A stretch of 64,000 bases of DNA. It comes from Daphnia pulex. Its lineage: Eukaryota > Arthropoda > Branchiopoda > Diplostraca > Daphniidae. A program made the translations under genes and the position numbers. Within the stretch, counting starts at the first letter, position 1. The number at the start of each line of letters is the position of its first letter. This document shows, piece by piece, positions 20,818 to 62,191 of the stretch. The notes under the pieces were generated by a model. The model searched no databases, was not told where the DNA came from, and saw nothing but the letters and a program-made list of their open reading frames with translations. The stretch covers positions 3,224,001-3,288,000 of the forward strand of contig NC_060023.1 of NCBI RefSeq assembly GCF_021134715.1, in the 5' to 3' direction.

Positions 20818-22621
20818 TTAGGGCAAGCCAAGTGGATTCCCGGTCCATGGATAGACGTCAGGACAGGTGACACAAATTGTCATATTGCGCGGGCCAACAG
20901 GAGACACATCGTCTTCATAGTAGCACGTATTATTTGTGCAAGGAGTCTTGGTCATGGTTGGACAAGAGAAGAAGTTTGGGACTTCGGCCAACGGTTTAGG
21001 ATTTTTCATCCAGTCCAATCCCTAAATTTGTTTTCAAACGCAATCGAGAAATAATAACCCGTCAGTAAACAATCGAAATGGAACATATATACGACTGAAG
21101 GTATTCTAAAATTATTTTCTCACTCTGGCAATGGGAACAACGTAAACGTCATCGTAAACTACAATTGCATCGAGGAACTTCTTGTAACCCTTCAAACGGT
21201 ACTGTGCATCCTGGAACCAGGCGTTAGCAGTCAAGTAGATGCCAAATGGAGCCTTGCTTGTAGTATAGTGACGTTGAAAATTGCTCATCAAATATTGATA
21301 AGTTTCATCCACTGTATTCGGTCTACAATCAAAAAGATAATGTATATATGCTAAAATTAAAAAAGCACTTCAAGAATTCATTGCAACTCCTGGCACGCAC
21401 TTGTCACAGGCATCAGCCATACTGCAAACGGTTTCATTTCGGTTTAAAGCCACCTATTGCAATATTTAGAACGTGAATGCATAATTACGAAAGAAGTTCA
21501 AACGTTGTTTTTTACCATCGGGACTGTCCAAATACCGGGGTATTTGTCTTTGGGACAAGGCGGGATTGCACATTCCTACAAAACACATTTGAAACATCAA
21601 AAACAATTACAAAATCTACTAGAAATTTAGTTTTTCAAAATATTGAGATTCTATAATTTTTGTAGTCCACTTACGTGTTGAAATCCTTGATCCAAAGTGT
21701 AAGGCCAAACAGGAGGATTAGTATTTTCAGTAGTTGGGAAAGAACAGTCGTAGAACATGCCAAGATTCTTCATGGCTGTAAAAGTAGCGTCACCGCTTGA
21801 CTGCAAGAACGGCGCTCGTGCACCCTGTTATTTTGATCCAATTAATGAACATTAAAGATTTATTCAAAAATTGAATTTGTACCCGAATTTCAGCTTTGGG
21901 AATGTTCGCAAATTTGGCCAGAGCCTCTTGGATTCCACCAATTTCATCAGTCCACTCGGACACTGACTTGTAAGCCCAATCTGACGATGGAGTTGAGTGG
22001 CTGTTATTGAACAGAGGAATGAAAATTTTTTATTTATTTATTTTTTGCTAAATAAATAATTGTAAAAAGACCTATTTTTTAGAAGAAAAAAAAATCGATC
22101 ATCACTTACGACATGCTGTGGGTTGCAATTTCCTGCCGTCTGAAGTAGAGACTGTGGGTCAGGGTGTAGTCGTTGTACTCGTGATAGACGAAGAAAGTCA
22201 TTTCAATCGGGCAGCCGTTGGGATTGATGCTGTTGTTCAACAGATATGTGTAGTCCATGTAATTGGTCGCCATAATCGCACCGTCAAACGCCAAAAAAAC
22301 CAATTGAGCTGAAACTCGATTCAATTCATTATTCCAACTGAATTCAATTTGTATTTATAGAGCAAACGATCAAACTTACGGGTATTCGCCAGGCTTAAAC
22401 CGCCTGGTGGAGACGTGGACATGCATTTGCAGGCCGGCCCTACGCAATTCGTGCTATACAGTGATGCAACAAATCGATTAATACAACCCGGCCATATACA
22501 ATTTAAATATTGAACTTGTATATAAATGCAGTAATCACAACGAAACTTACGAATTGCATTGCGCCTGCGATTGGTGGAGGAAGACGGCGAGAAAGAAGAT
22601 GACGGCCAAAATTCGTTGCAT
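20818..22621 (-). CDS. Chitin deacetylase-like secreted protein, tandem copy 1
   Basis: Nine exons: 22551-22621, 22380-22453, 22110-22308, 21883-22000, 21675-21824, 21516-21575, 21401-21453, 21124-21322, 20818-21021. All junctions are GT-AG and in phase, giving 375 aa. Residues 1-20 are a signal peptide ending QSQA. A short Cys-rich segment follows, then a polysaccharide deacetylase (NodB) fold of the single-domain arthropod type without LDLa or chitin-binding domains, and a Cys-rich tail ending GNPLGLP. Family members remove acetyl groups from chitin outside the cell, often in the gut lining. Motif 2 (HSMSH, 112-116), motif 3 (RAPF, 157-160) and motif 4 (D180) are kept. Motif 1 is AFDG (D57, G58 in place of the second Asp), and the motif 5 His is Thr273. 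Activity is therefore doubtful, and chitin binding remains possible. Family call firm, function inferred. Confidence 0.9.
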
Positions 22622-22696
22622 TTTGGCGCTTGTTAGCAAATAGACCCACAAAGATGTTTGAACTGCTTTGCCTCGCTACTATTGCACTTATCCAAA

Positions 22697-22702
22697 TTTA
22701 TA
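22697..22702 (-). promoter_or_regulatory. TATA box of CDA-like copy 1
   Basis: TATAAA on the minus strand, 75 bp upstream of the start codon. The matching position in copies 2 and 3 is also TATAAA, and copy 4 has GATAAA. Confidence 0.6.
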
Positions 22703-23269
22703 GCCTCGAAATCGTATGATGCAACGCTTAAGATAACTGATGAAACTGTCAAAAGTGCAAGACAATGCATATTATAATCACAGTTAACAGACAAACCACA
22801 AATACTGGTCATATATTTGTTCAGTTACAAGTTTTTCTCTTGTGCGCACTCAAATCACCACCCAGAAAATGTAATAAATTCATTTAAATATTATTATTAG
22901 TTGCTTTGTCTACGAAGAATTATTACCATTGGACACGAAATACGTTCGTGAAGCGCGATAGGCATTTGTTTCTTCCTTTTTTTTGGGGGGGGGGAGGGGA
23001 GATTCAAAAAACATTTTTTTTTTCTTTTTTTTTTTAATGAGGAATAATCAAACGCTAATAGCCAATAACTGGTTTGGGTACGACTCAGTCAAATAATCAA
23101 AAGGCGATGGTCAAGAGAAATTATATGACTAATGTTAAACACGCTGGACTCGAGCTCATTATTTTCCATAAAAAATACTATGAAGTATGAAACCGGATAA
23201 ATTCGCTTCTACACCTCGCAATTGCCATTTAGCATTTATTAAACAATGGCCCTTTATCACGACCTTACT

Positions 23270-23277
23270 TGACGTCA
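23270..23277. promoter_or_regulatory. CRE-type TGACGTCA site upstream of CDA-like copy 1
   Basis: Palindromic TGACGTCA, 649 bp upstream of the start codon, followed within about 10 bp by GATAGG and then by a conserved CATCTTGTTTGG block. All four copies have the arrangement. Confidence 0.5.
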
Positions 23278-23829
23278 CTGCATGATAGGGTAAGGCGGCG
23301 ATGTCATGCCCCATCTTGTTTGGGGGGGGGGGGTATACATTCTTACCTCTTTAGGTAAAGTTATATAATTACAATTATGCTATGTGTAAAAGTTTAACCC
23401 GAAATTGATGAATGGTAACCTTTGACGTGAATTAATCCTGAAAGTACAGTTATTCTTTTTCTCACATTTTAGACCCATTTCGAAAGTTCCGATCCCGTCG
23501 TGCACCATCTCGTAGTCGCCCATGATATTACATAAGATATTTCTCATTAAAACATTTGGACTGCAAAACAATGACATCACTCTTAGGATTTTGGGGAGAG
23601 AATTCAAATCACTTTACCCACTTTTAAGCTTGAAGTAAACTCAAATATTAATAAGAAAATAATTTTTTCCTGAATTAGAACAAAATCGCATTTTTCATAG
23701 CTGTCTACAAAAAAAGATGATAAATTAATCAAACACAAGAACATATCTGCTTACATATCTCAATGTCCTCCAAATCCAGCCCAAATCAACACACGTCTTT
23801 AACTTTTAAGCACTTTCAAATTACACCAG

Positions 23830-23835
23830 TTTATT
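23830..23835 (-). terminator. Putative polyadenylation signal of CDA-like copy 2
   Basis: AATAAA on the minus strand, 174 bp beyond the stop, in the same place as in the other copies. Confidence 0.5.
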
Positions 23836-24008
23836 CGTTATATACTCAACCGCATACGATATAGTGATGAAACAGCGGCAACCATTTTTAGCTACATCGT
23901 TGATAACAATTCGTATTTGATAAAACTAAAAACTAAAACCTTGCTACCATAGTCCGAGAGGTTCCATTCTAAAGCTAAGGATACACGTTGACCTTAAAAA
24001 TAAAAGAA

Positions 24009-25800
24009 TTATGGCAAGCCAAGTGGATTCCCGGTCCATGGGTAGACGTCAGGGCAGGTAACGCAACTTTTCATATTGCGCGGGCCGACAGGAGACGCAT
24101 CGCCTTCATAGTAGCACGTATAATTTGTGCAAGGAGTCTTGGTCACGGTTGGACAATTGAAGAAGTTTGGGACTTCGGCTAACGGCTTAGGATTTTTCAT
24201 CCAGTCCAATCCCTAAATTTGTTTTCGAACCCAATCGAGAAATAATGACCCGTCAGTAAACAATCGAAATGGAACATATATACGGCTGAAGGTATTCTAA
24301 AATTATTTTCTCACTCTAGCAATGGGGACAACGTAAACGTCATCGTTTACTAAAATATCGTTGAGGAACTTCTTGTAAGCCTGCAAACGGTACTGTGCAT
24401 CCTGGAACCAGGCGTTAGCAGTCAAGTAGATGCCAAATGGAGCCTTGCTTGTAGTATAGTGACGTTGAAAATTGCTCATCAAATATTGATAAGTTTCCTC
24501 AAAGGTATTCGGTCTACAATCAAAAAGATAATGTATATATGCTAAAATTAAAAAAGCACTTCAAGAATTCATTGCAACTCCTGGCACGCACTTGTCACAG
24601 GCATCAGCCATACTGCAAACGGTATCATTTCGGTTTAAAGCCACCTGTTGCAATATTTCGAACGTGAATGCATAATTACGAAAGAAGTTCAAACGTTATT
24701 TTTTACCATCGGGACTGTCCAAATACCGGGGTATTTGCTTAGGGGACAAGGCGGGATTGCACATTCCTACAAAACACATTTGAAACATAAAAAATAATTA
24801 CAAAATCTACTAGAAATTTAGTTTTTCAAAATATTGAGATTCTATTATTTTTGTAGTTCACTTACGTGTTGAAATCCTTGATCCAAAGTGTAAGGCCAAA
24901 CAGGAGGATTAGTATAATTAGTAGTTGGGAAAGAACAGTCGTAGAACATGCCAAGATTCTTCATGGCCGTAAAAGTAGCGTCACCGCTTGACTGCAAGAA
25001 CGGCGCTCGTGCACCCTGTAATTTTGATCCAATGAACATAAGACAACGCCTATATTTATAAAAAAATTTAATTTAAATAAACCCTAATCGAAGTTTTGGG
25101 AATGTTGGCAAATTTTGACAGAGCGTCTCTGATTCCGCCAATTTCATCAGTCCACTCGGTGACTGACTTGTTAGCCCAAGTTGCGGCTGGAGTTAAGTGG
25201 CTGATTTTGAACAGACGAATGAATTCATTTGTAAAAAATTTTGCTAAATAAATATTGTAGCAGGACCTATTTTTAGTTAAAAAAAAATCGATTTATCACT
25301 TACGACATGCTGTGGGTTGAAATTTCCTGCCCTTTGAAGTAGAGACTGTGGGTCAGGGTGTAGTCGTTGTACTCGTGGAAGATGAAGAAAGTCATTCCAA
25401 TGGGACAACCGTTGGGATTTGTGGTGTTATTGAACAGAAATGTGTAGTTGTCGTAATTCGTCGTCGTAATTGCCCCATCAAACGCCAAAAAAACCAATTG
25501 AGCTGAAATCAGATTTAATTTATTATTCCAACTGAATTTCGTATTGATATAGAAGGGACGTTAAACTTACGGGTATTCGCCAGGCTTAAACCGCCTGGTG
25601 GAGACGTGTTCATGCATTTGCAGGCCGGCCCTACGCAATTCGTGCTATAAAGTGATAAAAAAAAACGATTATTACAACCTAAAGCTACAATTGAAACAAT
25701 TACTCGTATATGAAAACAATGAAGCTCACGTATTGCACTGCGCCTGCGATTGGTGGAGGAAGACGGCGAGAAAGAAGATGACGGCCAAAATTCGTTGCAT
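24009..25800 (-). CDS. Chitin deacetylase-like secreted protein, tandem copy 2
   Basis: Exons 25730-25800, 25571-25644, 25304-25502, 25083-25200, 24866-25015, 24707-24766, 24592-24644, 24315-24513, 24009-24212. They have the same nine lengths as copy 1, giving 375 aa and a complete frame. The fourth donor is a weak GTTTAT. Signal peptide, NodB core and Cys-rich tail are as in copy 1. Motif 1 is again AFDG, motif 2 is HSMSH, motif 3 RAPF, and Thr replaces the motif 5 His (context GIYLTANAWF). In exon 3 this copy differs from copy 3 by a single residue (ISTHS versus IATHS), so the two have diverged or been homogenised very recently. Likely an extracellular chitin-associated protein with doubtful deacetylase activity. 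Confidence 0.9.
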
Positions 25801-25874
25801 TTTGGCGCTTGTTAGCAAATAGACCCACAACTATGTTTGAACTGCTGTGCCTCGCTACTGTTGCATTATCCACA

Positions 25875-25880
25875 TTTATA
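25875..25880 (-). promoter_or_regulatory. TATA box of CDA-like copy 2
   Basis: TATAAA on the minus strand, 75 bp upstream of the start codon, in a block shared with copies 1 and 3. Confidence 0.6.
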
Positions 25881-26417
25881 GTCTCGAAATTGTAGCTATG
25901 TTGCAACGCTTTAAGATAACTGGAGCCGTCAAAAGCGGCACGCCCAAGATAATGCATATTATATTGTTATAGCCACAGTTACAGACACACCACAATAAAT
26001 TAGCTACTGTCATATATTTGTTCAGTTCACAGAAGTTTTCCTTTTGTAGGCACTCGAATCACCTCACAGAGAATGCAATGAATTTATTTGAAAATATTTT
26101 CAGTTGCTCTGCGAAGACTTATTACCAATGAACACGAAATGCGTTTGTGAAACACGATTGGAATTTGTTTCTTTTTTTGTGAAGAACAAAATTCTTAAAT
26201 TGGTTTTGATGACGAATAATTAGCCGCTGATAACCATCAACAGCTCGCTTGGCTACGACTCAGTCAAGTAATAAAAAAGGCGATAGTCAAGAGAAAACAC
26301 GCTGAGCTCGAGCTCATAACTTTCCATTATAAATACTATAAACCCTGATAAATTCACCTTCACACCTCGCTATTGCCTTTTGTTACACAATGGTACCTAC
26401 TTAATCACAGGTATACT

Positions 26418-26425
26418 TGACGTCA
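26418..26425. promoter_or_regulatory. CRE-type TGACGTCA site upstream of CDA-like copy 2
   Basis: TGACGTCA, 618 bp upstream of the start codon, followed by GATAGG and CATCTTGTTTGG as in the other copies. Confidence 0.5.
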
Positions 26426-26742
26426 CTGCACGATAGGGAAGGTGGAAATGTCTCATGTCCCATCTTGTTTGGGAGTGGGTACATTTGTTCAGGTAAGATA
26501 GAATAGCCTAATTGCAATTATGTTAAGTGTAAAAGTTTTACCCAAAATTGATGAATGGCAACTCCTTTAATCACGTGTAATCCTAAAATTGTTGTTATTG
26601 TTTTTTCCCACATTTTAACTATTTTGGAAGCTCCAATTCCGTCGTGCGCCATCTCGTAGTCGCCCGTGATATTATTCATAAGATATTTCCATCAGTAAGA
26701 AATTTCACTGGAAAACAATGAATCATCACTACACTATTAGGA

Positions 26743-26765
26743 TTTTTTTTTTTGGGGGGGGGGGG
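26743..26765. repeat. T11-G12 homopolymer tract
   Basis: Eleven T followed by twelve G. The homologous sites in the neighbouring spacers (about 23588 and 29957) are short, so this is a local expansion. Confidence 0.8.
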
Positions 26766-27015
26766 AGGGATGGTTTTCAAATCACTTTAGCGTACCACTT
26801 GAGACTTGAAATAAATCAAAAAATTTAAAAGAAAATAAGTTTTCCATTAGTTGTGGAAGTTGGAACAAAACCATATTTTTCATTGGCCTCGCCCCTACTA
26901 AAAGAAAAGATGATAAAATTAATAAAACAAGAACATTTCTGCTTACGTATCCCAATGTCCCCCAAATTCAGCCCAAATCAACACACGTCTTTAAAGCTCT
27001 TTCAAATTACACGTG

Positions 27016-27021
27016 TTTATT
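27016..27021 (-). terminator. Putative polyadenylation signal of CDA-like copy 3
   Basis: AATAAA on the minus strand, 181 bp beyond the stop, in the same place as in the other copies. Confidence 0.5.
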
Positions 27022-27201
27022 CGTTATATACTCTACAGCATACGGTATTGGAACAGTGGCAAGCTGTTTTATAGCTATATCCTTATAAACAATCCGTATT
27101 ATGTTATAAAATTAAGAATTCAAACCTTGCTACTAGTCCAAGGGGGTAGTAATATAAAGCTGTAATGATCTAAGGATTCACGTTGACATAAAAAAAAAGA
27201 A

Positions 27202-28986
27202 TTATGGCAAGCCAAGTGGATTCCCGGTCCATGGGTAGACGTCAGGGCAGGTGACACAACTTTCCATATTGCGCGGGCCGACAGGAGACGCATCGCCTTC
27301 ATAGTAGCACGAATAATCCGAGCAAGGAGTCTGGGTCATGGTTGGACAAGAGAAGAAGTTTGGGACTTCGGCCAACGGCTTAGGATTTTTCATCCAGTCC
27401 AATCCCTAAATATGTTTTCAAACCCAATCGAGAAATAATAACACGTCAGTAAACAATCGAAATGGAACATATATACGGCTGAAGGTATTCTAAAATTATT
27501 TTCTCACTCTGGCAATGGGGACAACGTAAACGTCATCGTTTAATACAATTGCATCGAGGAACTTCTTGTAACCCTGCAAACGGTACTCGGCATCCTGGAA
27601 CCAGGCGTTAGCAGTTAAGTAGATGCCAAATGGAGCCTTGCTTTTAGTATAGTGACGTTGAAAATTGTCCATCAAGTATTGATAAGTTTCATCCAAGGTA
27701 TTCGGTCTACAATCAAAAAGATAATGTATGTGCTAAAATTTAAAAAGCACTTCAAGAATTCATTGCAACTCCTGGCACGCACTTGTCACAGGCATCAGCC
27801 ATACTGCAAACGGTTTCATTTCGGTTTAAAGCCACCTGTTGCAATATTTCGAACGTGAACGCATAATTACTAAAGAAGTTCAAACGTTATTTTTTACCAT
27901 CGGGACTGTCCAAATACCGGGGTATTTGTTTTTGGGACAAGGTGGGATTGCACATTCCTACAAAACACATTTGAAACATCAAAAACAATTACAAAATCTA
28001 CTAGAAATTTAGTTTTTCAAAATATTGAGATTCTATTATTTTTGTAGTTCACTTACGTGTTGAAATCCTTGATCCAAAGTGTAAGGCCAAACAGGAGGAT
28101 TAGTATAATTAGTAGTTGGGAAAGAACAGTCGTAGAACATGCCAAGATTCTTCATGGCCGTAAAAGTAGCGTCACCACTTGACTGCAAGAACGGCGCTCG
28201 TGCACCCTGGAATTTTGATCCAATTAATGAACATTAGAGATTTATTCAAAAATTGAATTTGTACCCTAATTGAAGTTTTGGGAATGTTGGCAAATTTGGC
28301 CAGAGCCTCTTGTATTCCGCCAATTTCATCAGTCCACTCGGCGACTGACTTGTTAGCCCAAGTGTAGGCTGGAGTTAAGTGGCTGTTTTTGAACAGATAA
28401 ATGAATTATTTTTTTTCCATCTTTGCTAAATAATAACAGTTTGGACAAGACCTATTTCCTAGTTTAAAAAAAAAACTTAAATTTATCCCTTACGACATGC
28501 TGTGGGTTGCAATTTCCTGCCCTTTGAAGTAGAGACTGTGGGTCAGGGTGTAGTCGTTGTACTCGTGGAAGATGAAGAAAGTCATTCCAATGGGACAACC
28601 GTTGGGATTTGTGGTGTTATTGAACAGAAATGTGTAGTTGTCGTAATTCGTCGTCGTAATCGCCCCATCAAACGCCAAAAAAACCAATTGAGCTGAAATC
28701 AAATTCAATTTATTATTCCAACTGAATTTTGTATTTATATAGAAGGGACGTTAAAACTTACGAGTATCTGCCAGGCTTAAACCGCCTGGTGGAGACGTGT
28801 TCATGCATTTGCAGGCCGGTTCAACGCAATTCGCGCTACAGTGATGCAACAAAATCGATTACAACCTATAGCTACAATTGAAACAATTAACACATATGAA
28901 AATAATGAAGCTCACGTAGTGCATTGCGCCTGCGATTGGTGGAGGAAGACGGCGAGAAAGAAGATGACGGCCAAAATTCGTTGCAT
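27202..28986 (-). CDS. Chitin deacetylase-like secreted protein, tandem copy 3
   Basis: Exons 28916-28986, 28762-28835, 28494-28692, 28265-28382, 28057-28206, 27898-27957, 27783-27835, 27508-27706, 27202-27405. Exon lengths are identical to copies 1 and 2, giving 375 aa with an intact frame. Signal peptide (MQRILAVIFF...), AFDG motif 1, HSMSH motif 2, RAPF motif 3 and Thr at the motif 5 position are shared. It differs from the others in exon 2 (VEPACKCMNTS in place of VGPACKCMSTS). Same inferred role: a secreted chitin-directed protein that probably cannot hold the catalytic metal normally. Confidence 0.9.
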
Positions 28987-29062
28987 TTTGGCGCTTTTCA
29001 GCTTATAAACCCACAAAGATGTTTTGACTGCTGTGCGTCGCTACTGTTGAACTATATCCATA

Positions 29063-29068
29063 TTTATA
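29063..29068 (-). promoter_or_regulatory. TATA box of CDA-like copy 3
   Basis: TATAAA on the minus strand, about 77 bp upstream of the start codon, as in copies 1 and 2. Confidence 0.6.
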
Positions 29069-29627
29069 GTCTTGAAATCGTATGTTGCAACGCTTAAGAT
29101 AACTGGAGCCATCAAAAGCGACACACCTAAGATAATGCATGTGTCAGTCACAGCTACACAGACACACCACAAACAGGCTAAGCTATACTGGTCAAGCAAT
29201 TATTTGTTCAGTTCACAGTTTTCCTCTTGTACACAATCAAATCACAACCCAGAGAACGTAATCAATTCATTAAAATATTATTATTAGTTGCTCTACGATA
29301 CGAAGATTGCCATTGAACACGAACAGTTTTCGTGAAACGCGATTGGCACTTATTAAATTTTTTTGTGGGGAGGGACTCAAACAACATTTTATAATTGGTT
29401 TTGATGATGAATAATTAGCCGCTAATAACCATCAATAGCTCGCATGGCGGCGACTCAGTCAAGTATAATATAAAAAGGCGATCGTCAAGAGAAATGATAC
29501 GACTGATGTTAAACACGCTGAGCTCGAGCTCATAATTTTCCATTATAAATACTATGAACCCGGAAAAATTCGCCTTGACACCTCGCAATTGCCATTTATT
29601 ACACAATGGTATTTATCAGAGTATTCT

Positions 29628-29635
29628 TGACGTCA
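29628..29635. promoter_or_regulatory. CRE-type TGACGTCA site upstream of CDA-like copy 3
   Basis: TGACGTCA, 642 bp upstream of the start codon, followed by GATAGG and CATCTTGTTTGG. Confidence 0.5.
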
Positions 29636-30184
29636 CTGCACGATAGGGGAAAATGGAAATATCATGTGACTCATGTCCCATCTTGTTTGGGAGTGGGTAT
29701 ATTTGTTCAGGTAAGATGAAATAGCCTAATTGCAAATATGTTAAGTGTAAAAGTTTTACCCAAAATTGATGAATGGTAACTGCTTTATAAACGTGTAATC
29801 CTAAAAGTGTTGTTATTATTTTTTCCCACATTTTTAAACCGATTTTTGAAGCTCCAATTCCGTCGTGCGCCATCTCGTAGTCGCCCATGATATTATACAT
29901 AAAAATATTTCCATCAGTAAGAAATTTCACTGGAAAACAATGACATCACTCTTAGGATTTGGTTCAAATCACTTTAATGTACCACTTTTAATTTTAAATA
30001 AATAAAAAAATTTAAAATAAAATAATTTGTTTTTCAAAAACCACATTTGTCATTGGTCGCCCCTACTAAAAAAAAGATGATAAAATTAATCAAACACAAG
30101 AACATTTCTGCTTACACATTATAATGTCCCTCAAATCCAGCCCGAATCAACACACGACTTTTAAGCACTTTCAAATTACACGTG

Positions 30185-30190
30185 TTTATT
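30185..30190 (-). terminator. Putative polyadenylation signal of CDA-like copy 4
   Basis: AATAAA on the minus strand, 191 bp beyond the stop, in the same place as in the other copies. Confidence 0.5.
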
Positions 30191-30380
30191 CGTTATATAC
30201 TCAACAGCATATGATGATGGAACAGTGGCAAGCCTTTTATAGCTATTTCGTTATAGACAAAATTCGTAGTATGTTATAAAATTAAGAATTCAAACCTTGC
30301 TACTAGTACAAGAGGGTAGTAAAATAAATCTAAAATGCTCTAAGGATACATGATGTTCACCATTTAAAAAATTAAAAGAA

Positions 30381-32214
30381 TTATGGCAAGCCAAGTGGAT
30401 TCCCGGTCCATGGGTAGACGTCAGGGCAGGTAACGCAACTTTTCATATTGCGCGAGCCGACAGGAGACGCATCGCCTTCATAGTAGCACGAATAACTTGA
30501 GCAAGGAGTCTGGGTCATGGTTGGACAAGAGAAGAAGTTTGGGACTTCGGCCAACGGCTTAGGATTTTTCATCCAATCCAATCCCTAAATTTGTTTTCAA
30601 ACCCAATCGAGAAATAATAACCCGTCAGTACAAAAAAAAAAAAGAATGATTACACTTGCAGCTTTTCCTCAATTCATTTTCTTACTCTGGCGATTGGGAC
30701 AATGTAAACGTCATCCTTTGTACTCAACGCATCGAGGAACTTCTTGTAACCCTGCAAACGGTACTCGGCACCCTGGAACCAGGCGTTAGCAGTCAAGTAG
30801 ATGCCAAATGGAGCCTTGCTTGTAGTATAATGACGTTGAAAATTGTCCATCAAGTATTGATAAGTTTCATCCAAGGTATTCGGTCTAAAATAAAAAAAAG
30901 TAATGTATATATGCTAAAATGAAAAAAGCACTTCAAGAAATCATTGCAACTCCTGGCACGTACTTGTCACAGGCATCAGCCATACTGCAAATGGTTCCAT
31001 TTCGGTTTGAAGTCACCTGTTGCAATATTTCGAACGTGAATGCATTGGCCATAAAAGATGAAAAAAGAAGTTCAAACGTTATTTTTTACCATCGGGACTG
31101 TCCAAACACCAGGAAATTTGCCTTTGGGACAAGGCGGGATCGCGCATTCCTATATATAAAACACATTTGAAAAAACCATAAACGAATTAAGAAATCTATA
31201 CTATTCATTTATATTTTTCCCAAACGAGATAACGTAATCATGCTGGTATTAATATAGTCCACTTACGTGTTGAAATCCCTGATCCAAAGTGTAAGGCCAA
31301 ACAGGAGGATTAGTATTTTCAGTAGTTGGGAAGGAACAGTCGTAGAACATGCCAAGATTCTTCATGGCCGTAAAAGTAGCGTCACCACTTGACTGCAAGA
31401 ACGGCGCTCGTGCACCCTGGAATTTTGATCCAATTAATGAACATTACAGATTTATTCAAAAATTTAATTTATGATTTATACCCTAATTTCAGCTTTGGGA
31501 ATGTTGGCAAATTTGGACAGAGCGTCTCTGATTCCACCAATTTCATCAGTCCACTCGGCGACTGACTTGCTAGCCCAAGTGGCGGCTGGAGTTAAGTGGC
31601 TGTTGTTTTGAACAGTCGAATGGATTTAAAAAGAAAAAGAAAAATGTGTAAAAAGTAGGAGCAAAAACTTTGTTCAACAAATAAAAAAAAGATAAATTGT
31701 AATATTAACTTACGACATGCTGTGGGTTGCAATTTCCTGCCGTTTGAAGTAGAGACTGTGGGTCAGGCTGTAGTCGTTGTACTCGTGGAAGACGAAGAAA
31801 GTCATTCCAATGGGACAACCGTTGGGATTGATGCGTTTGTTCAACAGAAATGTGTAGTTGTCGTAATTGGTCGTCGCGATGGCTCCGTCAAATGCCAAAA
31901 AAACCAATTGAGCTGAAATTCAATTCAATTCATTATTCCAACTGAATTAAATTTGTATTTATAGAGCGAACGATCAAACTTACGGGTTTGCGCCTTCGTT
32001 AAACCGCCTGGTGAAGACGTGGACATGCATCTGCAGGCCGGCCCTACGCAATTCGTGCTACAGTGATGCAACAAATCGATTATATACAACCCGTACAATT
32101 TTAAAAATATTTTGTATACAATAATAATTACAACGAAACTTACGAATTGCATTGCGCCTGCGATTGGTTAAGGAAGACGGCGAGAAAGAAGATGACGGCC
32201 AAAATTCGTTGCAT
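30381..32214 (-). CDS. Chitin deacetylase-like secreted protein, tandem copy 4
   Basis: Exons 32144-32214, 31984-32057, 31714-31912, 31482-31599, 31267-31416, 31090-31149, 30964-31016, 30686-30884, 30381-30584, giving 375 aa. This is the most diverged copy: exon 2 reads GLTKAQT where the others have GLSLA(N/D)T, exon 6 reads KGKFPGVW, and introns 5 and 8 do not resemble those of copies 1-3. In exons 1-5 and the 3' flank it nevertheless resembles copy 1. The changed catalytic positions (AFDG; Thr for the motif 5 His) are present here too, so they predate the duplications. It is the first copy in the direction of transcription and may be the founder. Confidence 0.9.
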
Positions 32215-34429: not shown

Positions 34430-35314
34430 AGAGAGACTGACACTGTTGGATTCACAATCATTTCTTCTCCGGCCAAAGAAACTAACATTTCACTCCGACA
34501 AGTTCAGCATCTCATCCGCACCGGAAATCCTCCCTTTTTTTGACGCAACTCGAAAGCGGATCCTAATACATTCAGCATCAAACCATCACAGCAGGTCTGC
34601 TATTATTAATTTTAATTCGTTCAGGCGACGCACTTTGGATTTCTAAATATGTTTTTTTAAGAAAGGAATAATAAATATATTTATAAGAAAAAGAATTGAT
34701 GTGTGCTCTTATTATACATATTAGGAGACAGTGCACGGATATATATAAAGTGCTGGTCAGCAGTCTAAACTTTGGCCTTGTTTATAGTTCCATAAAATAA
34801 TATCATCATTTGTGTGTGGCGAGGTGATTGCCGTTTGGTATATGTATACGCATTCAATTTTCCTAGTGATATGACATGTAACTATATATATAAGGCTATT
34901 GGGTACACGGCACGCGAAAGAAGAGATGGCGAGTGCTGTGTCCGGCGTCCGGTCACGGAACAAAGAGATTATAGTGGACGTTAACATCTCGTTTCATCGC
35001 TTGCACAGCGAGCGCGCGTGCAACATGAAAAGGCAAACGGCAATATAACTGCCGCCGCTGTGTAACGTAATATAGGCCCAGCACGAACCACCAGCACCAC
35101 CAGTCCAATAAACGCACAGGAGAGAGACCCGAATGGTGTCCTTTTACAACTCCATTGATTTCCATTGCTATATATATATATATTAGGCAACAGTTTGAAG
35201 ACACTTAATGGATGCTATTAAACGCTAAACGAATTCAGATTTGATTTGATTTTTCTCAACTTCAATTATTTGATTTTTCTCCAGGAATTTTTGAATAACG
35301 GAAATATTTCTAGA

Positions 35315-35659
35315 ATGGATACTGCCAATCATCGCATTTTGATCTTGACGCTATTGATGATCGGCCTGGCCAGCGCTCAGGTGAATTTCTCGACCAGCTG
35401 GGGCAAGCGCTCACCTTCGACTTCGACGAAAGCAGCGGAACCACCTTCAGCTCCTTCTTACCGCCAAAATTTCCACTCGAAAAAGGTCGAGTCAGGGACC
35501 CTGGAATCGCTCCCCAATAATCAGCATCTTCCCGAATCGTTCGACACCGTTTCCTCGACGATTTACGACGACGCCGAAGAGCAACGAATCAGCATATCTC
35601 TACCAAGTCCTTGCCTATCAATTCTGAAATCTCTCTTGTTGGTCAATCAAATAGTTGAG
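35315..35659 (+). CDS. RPCH: Red pigment-concentrating / adipokinetic hormone precursor (C-terminus unresolved)
   Basis: The precursor of a secreted neuropeptide that acts on a class A receptor and controls pigment movement or energy mobilisation in crustaceans and insects. Residues 1-21 are a signal peptide ending LASA. Residues 22-29 are the hormone QVNFSTSW, with Gln for pyroglutamate, and Gly30-Lys31-Arg32 gives amidation and cleavage. The rest is the precursor-related peptide, with one Cys (C100) in a hydrophobic SPCLSILKSLLLVNQIVE segment, as in related precursors. The frame starts just after an AG splice acceptor (35283-35284), and this Met is chosen because it opens the signal peptide. 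The exon probably ends at 35659 (GAG, then GTAGAA). If it is not spliced, the frame runs to a TAG at 35750-35752. The last exon, expected to hold a second Cys, was not found with certainty. Confidence 0.9.
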
Positions 35660-35752
35660 GTAGAATATCTTTTAAAATTTAAAACAAATTACAATCTCAA
35701 AATAGTTTATAAATTCACCGCTAGATGGCATGGATGCATAGGTTTAAAATAG

Positions 35753-49900: not shown

Positions 49901-51138
49901 TTTATCCACAACGACGACCAGGAGCATCACACACAACACACAGTAGGGGCTAAATTGATTAGCCCATTCACGTCCGACTGCGAGCTACAGCTGATGCTCC
50001 TATCTAGGAGCCATTAGGAGCCCGGTCACCGTATATATATCCATACACACAAGGCTTATAAATAGATGTCGACATGTCCAGCCCCAATTAATAATATGCG
50101 GGCGCACCGGGCCGTCTATATAGGCCTATATCTATAATGTCAAATGATCAAAGCGTGGCGGGAAATTCAAAATTCAAAATTGATGGTAATATCTCTCTAT
50201 CTCTCTTTTATTATTATGAAATAGGTGGCGAAGTGATGAACTATTACCTGATCAGTTTGGCGGCGGCCGACCTGCTGGCCGGCCTTTTGGTCGTGCCGCT
50301 GTCCATCTACCCGGCGTTGACGGACAGCTGGCCGCTGGGTGACGTGTTGTGCTCGATCGCCGGCTACGTGGAAGCGACTCTGTGGGCCGTCTCAGTGTAC
50401 TCGTTCATGTGGATATCGGTGGACCGCTACTTGGCCATCCGCAAGCCTTTGCGCTACGAAACGGTGCAGACGCCGTCGCGCTGCCAGTGCTGGGTCATCT
50501 TCACGTGGCTGACGTCCATGCTGGCCTGCTGTCCGCCATTGCTCCAGGGCTCGACCGGCTACGCCAGCGGGGCTCCTTACTTCGACCCGGAGGCCTTCGT
50601 CTGCCACCTCAACTGGACGGGCATGTCGGCCTACTCGGTGACGCTGGTCATCTTGGTCCTGTGTCCGACCCTGGCCACCGTGGCCTACACCTATTTCTAC
50701 ATCTTCAGCTCCATGCGCAAGATGAGGAGCTCCTTGCTGCAGCAGGACAAGGAATACGCGACGGCCCTGAGCGAGAACCTCTCCAACCCGACCCACCTCA
50801 TGTCCTTCATCCTGGTGATGACCTTCTGGCTGTCGTGGCTGCCGTTCATCTGCCTGACCCTGTACGAGTACCTGGCCCAGCATCGGATCGACTCCATCCC
50901 ATTCCTCCACTTCACCGTCTTCTGGCTGGGCATCTGCAACTCGTTCTTCAAGCTCTTCATCTACGTGGCCATGAGCCCGCTCTTCCGGCACAAGCTCAGA
51001 ATCTTCTGTCTCTCCTATCTCTGTTGCGGGGCCGCCAAGAGAAACAGCGCCAACAACAGGAGACCGCTCACTTCCGGATCGGCAAACAGGAACCACCACC
51101 ATCATCATCACAATAACGAAATCATCTACAGACGGTGA
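42119..51138 (+). CDS. Orphan class A G-protein-coupled receptor, GPR21/GPR52-like
   Basis: Exons 42119-42437 and 50225-51138, joined in phase 1 across a 7.8 kb intron; 410 aa. The N-terminus is rich in Ala, Ser and Gly, with a possible glycosylation site at N77. TM1 is about 81-103, and the intron falls between TM1 and TM2. D122 is the conserved TM2 Asp, C149 and C233 the disulphide pair, DRY 173-175, and TM6 has FWLSWLPF (W311, P313). TM7 reads NSFFKLFIY (345-353), so the Asn-Pro of NPxxY is Lys-Leu. GPR21 and GPR52 also lack that Pro. This, the SVDRYLAIRKPLRY segment and the AYTYFYIF segment in TM5 suggest that family, whose members are orphan, often Gs-coupled receptors of the plasma membrane. 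An in-frame TAG at 42113-42115 supports the start unless an upstream exon is spliced in. The tail is Arg/Asn/His-rich. Confidence 0.88.
44654..44671. repeat. Perfect 18-bp palindrome GGCTCCTATATAGGAGCC
   Basis: A self-complementary sequence and the clearest member of a motif family (GCTCCT/AGGAGC) dispersed in the receptor intron. Confidence 0.85.
45813..45842. repeat. Inverted repeat, 12-bp arms with one mismatch
   Basis: TGCCAGACTCTC (45813-45824) and GAGTGTCTGGCA (45831-45842) flank AAAATA. They pair at 11 of 12 positions. It is in the receptor intron, and transcribed it would form a short hairpin. Confidence 0.7.
46496..46509. repeat. Palindrome GCTCCTGCAGGAGC
   Basis: A perfect 14-bp member of the GCTCCT/AGGAGC family. 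Confidence 0.8.
46668..46687. repeat. GCTCCT...AGGAGC inverted pair
   Basis: Six-base arms around an 8-nt A/T spacer, from the same motif family. Confidence 0.65.
46889..46911. repeat. Poly(T) tract
   Basis: About 23 consecutive T in the receptor intron, after a short pyrimidine run. It could be a decayed poly(A) end of a minus-strand retrocopy, but no element body is visible. Confidence 0.7.
48021..48035. repeat. GCTCCT-AAC-AGGAGC inverted pair
   Basis: Six-base arms with a 3-nt loop. It shares CTAACAGGAG or a near variant with the inverted repeat at 19531-19553. Confidence 0.7.
48132..48150. repeat. (CT)n microsatellite
   Basis: Uninterrupted CT/TC dinucleotide run in the receptor intron. 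Confidence 0.85.
48577..48599. repeat. (AG)n microsatellite
   Basis: Uninterrupted AG run in the receptor intron. Confidence 0.85.
49996..50011. repeat. GCTCCTA-TC-TAGGAGC palindrome near the second receptor exon
   Basis: Seven-base arms with a 2-nt centre, 214 bp upstream of the exon. Another TAGGAGCC follows at 50015-50022. Confidence 0.75.
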
Positions 51139-56514: not shown

Positions 56515-58507
56515 ATGACTTCGTTAATCCAGGTAAGAAGATATCGTTTGTTTGCACGTCTCATGTTTTCCTACTTAAGACTTATCACCCAGATGGCCTT
56601 TTTACAACGACGCACTTTCACTTATCTGCGCCATTTTATCGAAAATAACAACTGTTCCCCATTTTTATTTTATCTACGAATTGAAATGCTATTTCCAGGC
56701 ATTGAAGACCCCTCTTGGCCTTCGTTCTGTTGGTTTCATTAAAAGGAGCTTGGCTTCCACTACCAACCCAACTACATCGTCAATCCCTGCACCCCAACAT
56801 GAGAAGCAAGGAGCATCTACTGGCTATTGTTTTGGTAATGTTTTGCAGTTTTTAAGTTGAATCATACTGGTATTGATTTACTCTTCTTGTTGATTTCAGA
56901 GCTTACGCCAGAACAGCGTGAAGTTCAAGAGCTGGCCAGGAAGTTTGCTCGTGAAGATGTCATTCCTGTTGCAGCCCATCACGATAGAACTGGAGAGTAC
57001 CCATGGGAGCTTATTAAGAAAGCTCACAGTCTGGGACTCATGAATGGTCACATTGATGCTGAATTTGGTATGGCTTTTAACAAATTTTTGATCCTTATCT
57101 CTTGACATTGTAATTTACTCTTATCATGTTAGGTGGCATGGGACTGAGCAATTTTGAAGGATGCCTCATTGCTGAAGAACTTTCATATGGTTGCACTGGT
57201 ATTGGAACTGCAATTGAAGCCAACGGTCTTGGGGTATCACACAGACTTTAATTCTGCAAGTTTTCTTGAACCTTGTGTCTAATGAGGAATCCTATATCTG
57301 CAGCAATCCCCAGTAATCTTGGCTGGAAACAAGGAACAGAAGAAGAAGTACTTGGGTCGCATGATTGAGGAACCCCTCATGTGTGTAAGTATATATTTTA
57401 AAAAAAATATCCCAGGTCTTATATCAGCCTTGTGAAGCATTAAATACGTGTTTAACAACAGGCTTACGGTGTCACCGAACCTGGAGCAGGATCAGATGTC
57501 GCCAATATCAGAACCAAGGCGGAAAAGAAGGGCGATCATTACGTTTTGAATGGACAGAAAATGTGGATCACCAATGGCGGTCACGCAAATTGGTATTTCG
57601 TCTTGGCCCGCACAAATCCCGATCCTAAAGCCCCACCTCATAAAGCTCTGACTGGTTTCATCGTCGACCGTGATACACCCGGACTCACTCCCGGCCGAAA
57701 GGTAAAAAATTCCTCGTAATAAATTGTGCAAGCCAGTCTATTCAAAAGTGAAATTTTTAACAATTTCCAGGAAATCAATATGGGCCAAAGAGCTTCCGAT
57801 ACCCGGGGAATCACATTCGAAGACGTTTTAGTGCCCAAAGAGAATGTTCTGATTGGTGAAGGTGCCGGTTTTAAAATCGCTATGGGCGCTTTCGACCAGA
57901 CCCGCCCTCCGGTACACCAAAACCAAATTCTTTCAATCTTGGCCACTGTTTTATCAGATATTTGGAGAAAAAATAACGAGACCTGTTTCCCTCCCAGGTG
58001 GCTGCTGGTGCCGTTGGTTTGGCTCAACGAGCTTACGATGAAGCCATGAAATATGCCATGGAGCGAAAGACTTTCGGCGTCCCCATTTTTAAACACCAGG
58101 CTGTGGCTTTCATGTTGGCTGACATGGCCATCGGTATCGAGACATCTCGTCTGGCTTGGATGAGGGCTTCCTGGGAAATTGATCAAGGAAGGCGAAACAC
58201 CTATTACGCTTCCATCGCCAAGGCTCTGGCTGGTGATGTGGCCAACAAATGTGCCACCGACGCTGTCCAGGTAATAACTGCAAGTTATGAAATGCTCCCA
58301 AGGTGATCCACTTAACTGATCACGTTTTTTTTTCTTCTTTTCTTTTTTAAATGGGACATTTAGATTTTTGGTGGCAATGGTTTCAATTCCGAGTATCCCG
58401 TCGAAAAACTCATGAGAGATGCCAAGATTTATCAAATTTATGAAGGAACTGCCCAAATCCAGCGCGTTATTATCTCCAAAGAAATCGTTTCTCGTTTCAC
58501 TGCTTAA
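56515..58507 (+). CDS. ACADM: Medium-chain acyl-CoA dehydrogenase, mitochondrial
   Basis: Exons 56515-56532, 56699-56834, 56900-57067, 57133-57233, 57304-57384, 57462-57701, 57771-57911, 57998-58270, 58364-58507; all GT-AG and in phase; 433 aa (human enzyme 421). A FAD enzyme that makes the first double bond in beta-oxidation of C6-C12 acyl-CoAs in the mitochondrial matrix and passes electrons to ETF. Residues 1 to about 30 are basic and Ser/Leu-rich, like an import signal. The first family signature ([13 protein letters not shown]) is at 169-181 and the second ([20 protein letters not shown]) lies early in the last exon. The catalytic base is Glu413 in [10 protein letters not shown], the position that marks the medium-chain type. 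Nearly every segment aligns with human ACADM. Its start sits in a one-line first exon after a TATA box. Confidence 0.97.
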
Positions 58508-59195
58508 AGAAAAGAAAATTAGAAATCTTTTTATCGTGAAACTTTTTTAAAAATTCAATCTCATCTATCGATCTGAGCTCATCCGAATAATAAAGGTTTA
58601 AAAGACTTAAAAAAAAAACGAAAAATCGATACAATGCAATTAGTTTTTAAGTGAACATTTATATTTCTGCAATACAAGAAGTTCAGCACAGCCGAACATG
58701 AGTTGGTTTCTATTCCTGTATATATGTTTTTGTTTTACGATGACGAAACGAGGTTTGCGTGCGGTCATCCGATTTTGGCGTCATTATTTTGGCAGTAAAC
58801 AAAGGTCGAACAAGGGGGTGGAATAAAAGAAAGTTGCTGCCCGTTTGGTTCACACGTCCGCCATCGGTGGCGCTATTGTAGGGTTTCCATTCCTGCTCCT
58901 TGCCTGTTGTGTTTACATTTTCTAAGATTCTTATTGTGAAGAGCCAGATGATCAGGTCCAGTAATTGAGTAATTGGTGGACATGAAAACGTATAACAATC
59001 GAAATTAATCGTAATGGTAGACATGAAAAAATTTTAAACGTTAGAATTAGGCAAATGTTTACGTAAAGAATTGAAATGTGATTTACCTTACACAAAGTTC
59101 TATTTCATGATATTTGTCAAAATCCATCGTCCCTTTTAAAGTTCCGGGCTCAGATATACGCGCATTAAGTTAGATAACGTTTATGTTCTACAGCG
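58508..59195. other. Spacer between ACADM and the ZYG11/ZER1 gene
   Basis: It begins with the ACADM 3' UTR, with AATAAA at 58589-58594. The 5' UTR of the next gene lies at the right end. A TTCTACAG just before its start codon could be the acceptor of a 5' UTR intron. No gene seen between. Confidence 0.65.
58589..58594 (+). terminator. Putative polyadenylation signal of ACADM
   Basis: AATAAA, 82 bp after the stop codon. Confidence 0.6.
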
Positions 59196-62191
59196 ATGCC
59201 TTTCAAATCGATCCTTGTTGATAACACCCCTTACACTTTGCAAGACATTTGCCTGCAGTCACTGGGAAAGTACTTGAATTCAGCCAACCTTTTTCTGGGT
59301 GCACGAGATGGTTTGTCCTTACCAACAGAGCTCTGTGAGAGATTGTTGCAGTATCAAATTCAGGAAGACAGAGACTTGGACTCCCAGTTTGTCAGCATAT
59401 TTGAGGATACCAGCTGTACCCGTCTCAAACGTGTTTCACTCAAATTGTGTACCCTCAAGGAACATGAAGCTGAAATCTTGTTTAGACATGAACTCAGAGA
59501 GCTAGAACTAATTCGCATGAAGGTAATATCTCATTAAAGTTTTCTCATGCCAATTCAAGCTAATTTTTTCTGTACACAGGTTGCCCCAAAAGTCAGAAGA
59601 ACTTTAAATGAATATTCCCAACAGTTGATTTCCCTGACTGTTTCAGAATGCATTGATTTCTTCTCACAGCCCATCACCGAACTATTAATAACAGCTCCAA
59701 AATTAAGAAAATTTGTCCTTCAGTCAGTTCATGTCGACCCTGGGCATGAATTCTTTTCTTCCTTGTTAAGGGGTTTCCCTAATCTAGCCTATCTGGATCT
59801 ATCAGACTGCAATAATGTTGGTGATCTGTCCTGCCTGTTACATTGTCCTAATCTATCAACACTGATTCTTTATAATGTATCTGGTCTACAAGATGCCATT
59901 GAGTATATTTGCAAACTGGTTAGTTTAAGGTAAGTGTTAACAAAGTGAATTGGTCATGGGACAGTTTAATACATTGGGCTTCATTTATGTTTTAGACATC
60001 TAGATATTTCACAAAGCAGTGACATTCGGGGGCGATCTAATGAAAAGAACGGAACATACGAGCTACCCAATCAGACTTTGGCAATGCTTGTCGAAAGCCT
60101 GCCGTTTTTGAAATGTCTAGATATTTCAGGGACGAATTTGGCTGGAACAGGTAAAAAACTCTTCGTCCGTGATCAGTATGGTGATATTAAATTTGTTATT
60201 ATTTTTCGATAGGCGTTGCTGAAAAAACACCAAGTGGCAATTTAGCCACAGACATTCCAGGATTGCGAAGCCGGATTTCCAATCCATTGGATATGTTGGG
60301 ACTTTACGGCACATCCCACGAAGCCTGTCATCGTCATCACATCCCTGCCCTTTGTGTCACTGGAGACGCCAGTGAAGAGCAAATCCTAGCAGCTGGAAAG
60401 GTATAAAATTCAATTCCATACGATCACGGGGGAAAAAGAGTTGAGACTTACCATTTTTCTCGCAACAGGCTTATATCGATAGGGCAGAGATGATGCAAGG
60501 AGTTTTGAACGACTTGTATGGCATTATAAGACCAGAGACATGCCAAAATCCACTGGCGGCTTTGGATATTATATTACAAGCGATGGAAAATCATTGGACT
60601 GAAAGTCACATACAAATATCTGGAAGGTAATCGAATCCGTTAAATTTTGAATTTCTTTCAACACTCAGAATTTGTTTTCCCCCCTAACAGTGCGTCGTTG
60701 TTTTACATCGTGAAAAGCCCCGAACGTGAGCGATCGTTGCTCAACGTCAGAATCAAACAAAAAACCATATCTGTACTGTTGAAAGCCATGGATATGCATT
60801 GTGATGATCCTACAATGATGCGGAATGGATGTCTGACGCTTTGTCAGTTTAAAATCCCTCAGGATGTTGTACGTATTTGACTTTGAGTTCATTTTTGTCA
60901 CGACAGATCAATTCTTAATCAATGATTGACTTTACTAGTTATTTAGTTACGAGAGGTTGATACTGATTTTGCTGCATGTCGTGGGGGATCACAATCAAGA
61001 CGATTTCGTCCGGCGGATCGCCATCTATTTGTTAAACTCCTTGGCCTGCCAAGTCGACGGGAAGTTTAAACAACTGGTCGGTAGTCTTGGAGCGATCGAG
61101 GTAAATTTTAAATGTCATTATTATTTAAACTAGAAAAGTTAAGTAATGATATATTTGATTATTCCAGACCATGCTACAGCTGATTGAAGAGAAACTGAGA
61201 CGCAATGTCTGCGATGATGTTATGGAAGTAGCGTGGTCCACAATGTGGAACGTAACCGATGAAACTGCTCTCAACTGCAAACGCTTTTTAAGGCACAGCG
61301 GCATGCAGTTCTTTCTTAATTGTCTCAAAGTAAGTTGAACTGTATATTTTCTTTTAAAAAACCAAATTTCTACTTGCCATTCCTTTTTTTTGCAATTTCC
61401 AGGCCTTTCCTAATCATCCCGAATTGCTTCGTAATATGATGGGTCTTTTGGGTAATGTGGCTGAAGTGGAAGAGCTAAGACCGCAACTGATGACTTCCGA
61501 ATTCATCACCGTATTTTCGGATTTATTATATTCAACCAGCGATGGGATTGAAGTGAGAGTCTTATCGTGCAGGCCCTTGGAACTAGACTGATTAAATCCA
61601 ATCCTCTTTAGGTGAGCTACAACGCAGCCGGCGTCTTGGCGCATATCGCATCTGATGGTGCAGAATGCTGGAAAATCAAAGAACCTAATCGCGAAGACGT
61701 TCTAAACCGAATCGTCACCGCCATCGATCGCTGGGATATAGATTCCAAGCGAAATATTAATTATAGGTATGAAATTCTGCATTAATGCTGTAAACCCAAG
61801 TCGATTAAATTTTTCTTTGAAAATTCTCATTTCAAAAAAAGATCATTTGAACCGATTCTCCGTCTCTTGAACATGGATCATACACCGCAGTGTCAGTATT
61901 GGGCTGTCTGGGCATTGGCAAATCTGACTCGAGTTTACGGTAAGATTTGGTTTCCTAATTATCCTGAAAAATCCTCATTTAATTTCTTAATTTCATTGAA
62001 TAGCCGAGAAATACTGTCGACTCTTGAAAGAAGAAAATGGATTTCAAATCTTGGAAAAATTGGTGGCCAGGACGGTCGACGATAAAGTGCGACGTTTCGC
62101 CAAAAACGCGCTCGAAGGTTCAATCGAATATCTCGAACGCAATGCAGTGGCGGGTTGCGTCGATGACCATTCAGACGAATTAGAAGGGTGA
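59196..62191 (+). CDS. ZYG11/ZER1-family CUL2 ubiquitin ligase substrate receptor
   Basis: Exons 59196-59522, 59580-59929, 59996-60150, 60213-60400, 60469-60626, 60691-60868, 60939-61100, 61168-61329, 61403-61552, 61612-61766, 61842-61939, 62004-62191; 756 aa, close to human ZER1 and ZYG11B. Residues to about 100 carry the elongin/cullin-binding N-terminal region (SLPTELCERLLQY). Leucine-rich repeats follow at about 95-280 (LAYLDLSDCNNV, HLDISQSSD, LDISGTNLAGTG), then armadillo-like helical repeats from about 340 to 750 (MRNGCLTLCQF, NMMGLLGNVAEVEELRPQLM, YWAVWALANLTRVY). In animals these proteins recruit targets with an N-terminal glycine to CUL2 ligases, and worm ZYG-11 acts in meiosis. I cannot decide between the ZYG11 and ZER1 branches by eye. 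All junctions keep phase and the frame is intact. Confidence 0.93.

What the first reader, a model, noticed from the sequence alone, without database searches (positions are those of the whole stretch)
20818..32214. Four tandem chitin deacetylase-like genes, all predicted to lack a normal active site
Each copy is intact (9 exons, 375 aa), yet all four read AFDG where the family has TFDD, removing one of the three metal ligands, and all have Thr in GIYLTANAWF where a catalytic His is usual. The HSMSH, RAPF and D180 motifs are kept. Intact frames plus shared loss suggest selection for a non-catalytic role such as chitin binding in the gut lining, or an unusual catalytic arrangement. The motif meaning is established for the NodB/CE4 family; the conclusion is inference.
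Basis: partly seen in the sequence, partly recalled or inferred. Interest (0 to 1): 0.72.

Follow-up and report, generated by a model that had tools for sequence, protein, structure and literature searches.

The report
Four tandem, probably inactive chitin-deacetylase genes
A water-flea-like genome carries four neighbouring intact copies of a chitin-modifying enzyme gene that share the loss of two active-site residues, so they probably bind chitin instead of altering it; this is a new variant of a kind already suspected in insects and ticks.

Summary
Four minus-strand genes (20818-32214) each have 9 exons, 8 GT-AG introns and 375 codons; the proteins are 86-92% identical. The best solved match is silkworm BmCDA8 (E 8.6e-85). 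Against BmCDA8 all four have Gly at zinc ligand Asp63 and Thr at motif-5 His282, while base Asp62, both His ligands, motif-3 Arg162 and motif-4 Asp244 are kept. Of ten comparison proteins, nine keep all seven residues, among them the four nearest paralogs in this genome; one (C8a) has lost five on its own.

Two corrections to the interpretation. Loss of the metal Asp alone proves little: 6 of 49 bacterial CE4 domains lack it, and PdaA-type enzymes without it are active (PMC5855634 passages). The joint loss with the motif-5 His is the stronger sign. And the four copies are one event, spread by tandem duplication and gene conversion.

Frames are under constraint (omega 0.50) but less than in intact siblings (0.19). 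Most likely: secreted, non-catalytic chitin-binding proteins, perhaps of the gut lining. Binding and location are inference. Inactive CDA-like gut-lining proteins are already proposed in print.

The parts
20818..22621 (-). copy A, CDA-like gene; exons 22551-22621, 22380-22453, 22110-22308, 21883-22000, 21675-21824, 21516-21575, 21401-21453, 21124-21322, 20818-21021
24009..25800 (-). copy B; exons 25730-25800, 25571-25644, 25304-25502, 25083-25200, 24866-25015, 24707-24766, 24592-24644, 24315-24513, 24009-24212
27202..28986 (-). copy C; exons 28916-28986, 28762-28835, 28494-28692, 28265-28382, 28057-28206, 27898-27957, 27783-27835, 27508-27706, 27202-27405
30381..32214 (-). copy D; exons 32144-32214, 31984-32057, 31714-31912, 31482-31599, 31267-31416, 31090-31149, 30964-31016, 30686-30884, 30381-30584
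22280..22291 (-). copy A motif 1 AFDG (Gly58 codon 22280-22282)
25474..25485 (-). copy B motif 1 AFDG (Gly58 codon 25474-25476)
28664..28675 (-). copy C motif 1 AFDG (Gly58 codon 28664-28666)
31884..31895 (-). copy D motif 1 AFDG (Gly58 codon 31884-31886)
21214..21243 (-). copy A motif 5 GIYLTANAWF (Thr273 codon 21229-21231)
24405..24434 (-). copy B motif 5 GIYLTANAWF (Thr273 codon 24420-24422)
27598..27627 (-). copy C motif 5 GIYLTANAWF (Thr273 codon 27613-27615)
30776..30805 (-). copy D motif 5 GIYLTANAWF (Thr273 codon 30791-30793)
22622..24008 (.). intergenic part of the tandem unit, 1387 bp (the other two are 25801-27201, 1401 bp, and 28987-30380, 1394 bp)
   Evidence: 5' flanks of A, B, C are alike and that of D is not; 3' flanks of B, C, D are alike and that of A is not

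Best explanation
The four genes are a recently amplified tandem array of secreted, single-domain (group V-like) chitin-deacetylase relatives that no longer deacetylate chitin. Shown: intact genes, an N-terminal hydrophobic stretch followed at once by the CDA domain, the CE4 fold signature with all conserved cysteines, the shared loss of one zinc ligand (Asp63 to Gly) and of the motif-5 general acid (His282 to Thr), siblings in the same genome that keep both, and purifying selection on the frames. Inferred: without general acid and full metal triad the deacetylase reaction fails or is very weak; the protein is kept because the cleft still binds chitin, so that it works as a structural or protective chitin-binding protein, most plausibly in the peritrophic (gut-lining) matrix as proposed for other CDA-like gut proteins. 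Extra copies raise dose or add variants, and gene conversion keeps them alike.
For: Gene models and splice sites; BmCDA8, a peritrophic-type CDA, as best solved relative (PMC6463723, Results and Discussion read); two catalytic losses in all four copies against nine comparators that keep all seven residues; 14 of 14 conserved Cys columns kept; omega 0.504 with omega = 1 rejected by 2 x 9.8 log units, kappa fixed in the constrained fit; no other Pfam domain in copy D at E <= 1. Of 39 bacterial CE4 domains with motif 1 and the motif-5 position aligned, 38 keep the motif-5 His, and the one without it has also lost the base Asp, so the combination in the window was seen in 0 of 39. Precedents: TnPM-P42 binds chitin strongly through a CDA-like domain (PMC3958831, passages) and its deacetylase activity was not detected (PMC2817921, passages); tick IsCDA is suggested to be non-enzymatic and supportive (PMC3798397, passages); motif 4-5 substitutions in group V are hypothesised to inactivate (PMC11719712, passages).
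Against: No expression, localisation, binding or activity data. The catalytic base, both His, motif-3 Arg and motif-4 Asp are kept, which a pure binding role does not need. 0 of 5 cleft aromatics named for BmCDA8 (F238, F247, F248, F347, Y361) are kept in the copies, and Q125 of subsite +1 is Ser or Ala, so retained chitin binding is not visible in the sequence; intact paralog C7q also keeps 0 of these 5. Substitutions at family-invariant positions are not significantly enriched at catalytic residues (p 0.17). PF01522 scores below its cut-off for copy D (15.9 against 23.1 bits) and above it for intact sibling C7q (29.6).
Confidence: 0.58

Rival explanations
1. Still a metal-dependent deacetylase with a changed site: two His plus water hold the metal, as in PdaA-type enzymes, and another group or the solvent replaces the general acid, giving weak or differently aimed activity.
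For: Base Asp, both His, Arg and motif-4 Asp are kept. 6 of 49 bacterial CE4 domains lack the metal Asp yet keep base, both His, Arg and motif-5 His; one of the 4 Asn-bearing ones scanned is PdaA by NCBIfam (304.1 bits, cut-off 298) and one of the 2 Ile-bearing ones PdaB (273.2, cut-off 237.4). PMC5855634 (passages) lists MurNAc deacetylases without the metal Asp as active. Insect CDAs are weak enzymes anyway, and BmCDA1 needs partner proteins (PMC6463723).
Against: All 6 of those bacterial domains keep the motif-5 His; the window copies do not, and TANAW offers no residue of like chemistry.
Confidence: 0.17
2. Genes in decline: after losing activity the copies drift, held up mainly by recent duplication and gene conversion.
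For: omega 0.504 against 0.187 in the intact siblings; three more family-invariant positions vary among the copies (R80, G111, A115) and L34 is lost in all. The comparison of omegas mixes recent (dS 0.09-0.18) and old, near-saturated divergence (dS 1.0-1.7), which by itself can raise the recent value.
Against: omega below 1 in 6 of 6 pairs with bootstrap bounds under 1; no stop, no exon indel in four copies while 8 of 8 introns have indels.
Confidence: 0.15
3. A changed reaction on chitin or a related sugar, as in SwsB, a CE4 protein with a substituted catalytic Asp that became a metal-independent lactam cyclase.
For: SwsB shows that a CE4 site with a lost catalytic residue can be an enzyme of another kind (PMC12444981, passages). 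The copies keep most of the site.
Against: SwsB lost the base and keeps other parts; no candidate reaction or substrate is apparent here.
Confidence: 0.06
4. Artefact of assembly or gene modelling.
For: None found; no transcript data were available to confirm splicing.
Against: Four copies with different synonymous codons agree at Gly58; 32 of 32 introns are GT-AG; own aligner agrees for copy A.
Confidence: 0.02

Closest known systems
BmCDA8 (Bombyx mori, PDB 5z34), group V chitin deacetylase
   Same: Single CDA domain after a signal peptide, 38-39% identity, same cysteine pattern, motif 2 HSxSH, PFLQ in motif 3, CSMxDxC in motif 4.
   Different: BmCDA8 has TFDD and the motif-5 His and is a proven enzyme (PMC6463723); the copies have AFDG and Thr, and lack its cleft aromatics.
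CDA-like peritrophic proteins proposed as non-enzymatic: TnPM-P42, tick IsCDA, ApCDA5a/b
   Same: CDA-like secreted proteins for which binding or support without catalysis is proposed (PMC2817921, PMC3958831, PMC3798397, PMC11719712; passages).
   Different: For ApCDA5 motifs 1-3 are said to be kept and motifs 4-5 altered; here motif 1 has lost the metal Asp as well. Their sequences were not in reach, so I could not align them.
Intact siblings in the same genome: C7p, C7q, C7r (C7:9175133-9181431) and C8c (C8:13423788-13425401)
   Same: Nearest relatives, 40-46% identity, one clade with the four copies (support 100/98); also a tandem set.
   Different: They keep all seven catalytic residues and omega is 0.187.
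PdaA-type MurNAc deacetylases (TIGR02884)
   Same: Metal Asp absent, base Asp, both His and Arg kept.
   Different: Keep the motif-5 His; bacterial sporulation enzymes of peptidoglycan.
GH18 chitinase-like lectins
   Same: General plan: enzyme fold kept, catalysis lost, sugar binding kept (PMC10234404, passage).
   Different: Unrelated fold and family; only an analogy.

Membership tests
CE4 / NodB-fold polysaccharide deacetylase family | Homology over the NodB domain | tested here: met
   5z34 E 8.6e-85 and 5zns E 5e-64 over residues 21-373; PF01522 itself 15.9 bits, below its 23.1 cut-off
CE4 / NodB-fold polysaccharide deacetylase family | Base Asp in motif 1, HxxxH motif 2, RxP motif 3, Asp in motif 4 | tested here: met
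   kept in 4 of 4 copies
Active CE4 deacetylase (canonical) | His-His-Asp metal triad | tested here: not met
   Asp63 is Gly in 4 of 4; not decisive alone,
Active CE4 deacetylase (canonical) | General-acid His in motif 5 | tested here: not met
   His282 is Thr in 4 of 4
Active CE4 deacetylase (canonical) | Deacetylase activity | not testable with these tools
   needs purified protein
Arthropod group V chitin deacetylases (CDA6-9) | Only a CDA domain; no chitin-binding (CBM_14) or LDLa domain | tested here: met
   Pfam scan of copy D at E <= 1 gave PF01522 alone; copies A-C not scanned
Arthropod group V chitin deacetylases (CDA6-9) | Clusters with group V in a tree | tested here: inconclusive
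   On the side of BmCDA8 against group I and C5 (100/98) but the order of C1x, BmCDA8 and the eight-gene clade is open and BmCDA8 is a long branch; only two reference arthropod sequences
Arthropod group V chitin deacetylases (CDA6-9) | Expressed in the gut | not tested
   no expression data in reach
Chitin-binding peritrophic proteins | Binds chitin and sits in the peritrophic matrix | not testable with these tools
   inference from relatives only

The most novel reading that the evidence does not exclude
A CE4-derived family of chitin lectins: a lineage-specific, tandemly expanded set of deacetylase-fold proteins that lost catalysis but stay under selection, the CE4 counterpart of the chitinase-like lectins. 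In the same genome a second CDA (C8a) has lost catalysis independently and more completely, so loss of activity with retention of the protein would be a recurrent route in this family.
Probability: 0.25. Interest if true: 0.55.

Novelty: new variant of a known kind. Interest (0 to 1): 0.38.

Why it matters
Arthropod chitin deacetylases are weak or silent enzymes in vitro although their loss is harmful, and it is open how much of their work is catalysis and how much is binding. A genome with intact and catalytically altered sister genes side by side offers a natural test: compare binding, activity and knock-out phenotype of matched proteins. It also warns that annotation by family name would call these four genes deacetylases.

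Tried and rejected
Metal-Asp loss as proof of inactivity: rejected after the bacterial control and PMC5855634. Fourfold independent loss: rejected, since different segments group the copies differently (A with D and B with C in the 5' half; A, B, C against D in introns 5 and 8; A with C at one middle block). A spare exon with an intact motif: none seen between the copies. C2:12964397, over the PF01522 cut-off, gave no CDA model (score 48, stretches without CDA motifs) and was dropped from the tree and the counts. Enrichment of losses at catalytic sites: not significant for the four copies. In one search I labelled a motif-3 column R160; that column is Gly, and the Arg is R162, which is in the invariant list and kept; the Fisher counts do not change. 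A structure prediction was not run: the tool takes proteins that the DNA gives letter for letter, and these are spliced; pieces by exon would not have answered the question. Other arthropod or Daphnia genomes are not in the collections used, so the age of the loss could not be set. No gut-specific promoter test was made. Bacterial control limits: 8 genomes chosen by me out of a capped pattern scan for a TFDDGP-type motif, 56 loci, 59 aligned domains of which 10 had motif 1 unaligned and were dropped, leaving 49; the HMM was built from 12 seeds.
Full report
What is there. The window is G000:C7:3224001-3288000 of a genome of 133,188,837 bases in 13 contigs. Size and contig number fit Daphnia pulex from recall; an ORF with the peptide QVNFSTSW followed by GKR scores as adipokinetic hormone (Pfam E 3.3e-6), and that peptide is, from recall, the Daphnia form. 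The species is not shown by any search. Four minus-strand genes lie at 20818-22621, 24009-25800, 27202-28986 and 30381-32214. Each has 9 exons of the same lengths, 8 GT-AG introns and 375 codons. Intergenic gaps are 1387, 1401 and 1394 bp.

The active site. The only PDB sequences found at E <= 0.001 are BmCDA8 (5z34, 8.6e-85) and BmCDA1 (5zns/5znt, 5e-64). In BmCDA8 the metal is held by Asp63, His117 and His121 (PMC6463723, Results read). The alignment of 14 proteins puts Gly58 of the four copies on Asp63 and Thr273 on His282; Asp62, His117, His121, Arg162 and Asp244 are kept. The five motif residues' roles (base, metal triad, Arg that holds the base, Asp-His relay, general acid His) are as described in PMC5855634 and PMC10967932 (passages). 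Of 63 positions that are invariant in nine CDAs I counted as motif-intact, the four copies differ together at L34, T60, D63, V104, R274, H282 and F296, and in part at R80, G111 and A115.

The rest of the family in this genome. Searches with copy D and with PF01522 and spliced models give 12 CDA-domain genes: the four copies; C7p, C7q, C7r and C8c, which form one clade with them (100/98); C1x; C5; and the group I pair C8a and C8b. This is more than the 3 given for D. pulex in PMC8002005 (Table 3, passage), and may still be a lower bound. Of the eight other genes, seven keep all seven catalytic residues. The eighth, C8a, has lost five of seven (D62N, D63G, H117F, H121S, H282G) against 3 of 56 other invariant positions (Fisher p 0.00015), and stretches scoring as CBM_14 and LDLa lie upstream of it.

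Is it selection or decay? Pairwise omega is 0.44-0.59 with bootstrap upper bounds of 0.69-0.97. A codon model gives 0.504, and 0.187 for the four intact siblings; a fit with omega = 1 and kappa 2.5 is worse by 9.8 log units. So the frames are constrained, but less than in the siblings; part of the difference may come from comparing recent with old divergence. Introns 2, 4, 5, 7 and 8 show different groupings of the copies at up to 94-100% identity, and blocks along the gene favour AD/BC, then AC/BD, then AB/CD. Upstream of the start, A, B and C are alike and D is not; behind the gene, B, C and D are alike and A is not, as expected for duplication of whole gene-plus-gap units. The shared Gly and Thr are therefore best counted as one event.

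How much does each loss mean? In 8 bacterial genomes, 59 CE4 domains were aligned; 49 have motif 1 aligned. 41 read Asp-Asp, 4 Asp-Asn, 2 Asp-Ile and 2 have lost both. All 6 with only the second Asp lost keep both His, the Arg and the motif-5 His. One of the Asn type scores as PdaA and one of the Ile type as PdaB (the other four were not scanned). PdaA-type enzymes are active although they lack the metal Asp (PMC5855634, passages; metal dependence of PdaA in PMC12444981, passages). So the first loss alone is not proof. Of 39 domains with motif 1 and the motif-5 position aligned, 38 have the His; the other one has lost both Asp too. The combination in the window, base and both His kept but metal Asp and general acid gone, was seen in 0 of 39. 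The sample is small and was picked through genomes that hold a TFDDGP-type motif.

Mechanism. The best reading is a secreted CE4-fold protein that can no longer carry the proton to the leaving amine and has a crippled metal site, kept for binding chitin. Inactivity is inferred from residues, binding from relatives: TnPM-P42 (passages in PMC3958831 and PMC2817921) and the suggestions for IsCDA and ApCDA5 (PMC3798397, PMC11719712; passages). Against an easy transfer: none of the 5 cleft aromatics of BmCDA8 is kept, nor Gln125, though Ser241 is; but intact C7q also keeps none of the 5, so these residues say little either way. BmCDA7, of group V, was reported active in a crude preparation (PMC3958831), so group V proteins are not inactive as a rule.

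What is known. Substitution of critical motif residues in insect CDAs is described as frequent (PMC2817921, passage), and inactive CDA-like gut proteins are proposed in several papers. In the ten full-text searches, whose listings are all I saw beyond 15 papers opened in part, I met no description of this Daphnia array or of joint loss of the metal Asp and motif-5 His in an arthropod CDA; most subscription papers are not in that library. I file the array as a new variant of a known kind, interest 0.38.

Noticed in passing
L039 (G000:C8:7198215-7199555, minus strand): C8a, a group-I-like CDA next to intact C8b, has lost five of seven catalytic residues (TFNG, FSVTS, HFGAS) while 53 of 56 other invariant positions are kept; CBM_14 and LDLa stretches lie upstream. 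It may be the CDA2A/vermiform-type gene whose D. magna protein rises with predator cues (PMC4236883, passages); that link is not shown. A stronger pseudoenzyme case than the four copies.
   Followed up: partly
L043 (G000:C1:2319560-2320440): C1x has two alternative exons for the stretch from motif 1 to motif 2, both with TFDD; they look mutually exclusive.
   Followed up: partly
window 35222-35752 (+): ORF with signal-like start and QVNFSTSWGKR, scored as adipokinetic hormone (Pfam E 3.3e-6).
   Followed up: partly
window 50095-51138 (+): Exon of a rhodopsin-type seven-helix receptor (PF00001 E 1.1e-39).
   Followed up: partly
window 57977-58306 (+): Exon of an acyl-CoA dehydrogenase (PF00441 E 1.9e-24).
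   Followed up: partly
window 59178-59933 (+): ORFs that look from recall like a ZYG11/ZER1-type leucine-rich protein; the first gave no Pfam match at E <= 0.01.
   Followed up: no
residue 90 of copies A-D: Ser or Thr in nine motif-intact CDAs (BmCDA8 S95, just before a conserved His) is Tyr or Phe in the copies; a bulky residue near the site might fill the pocket. Not modelled.
   Followed up: no
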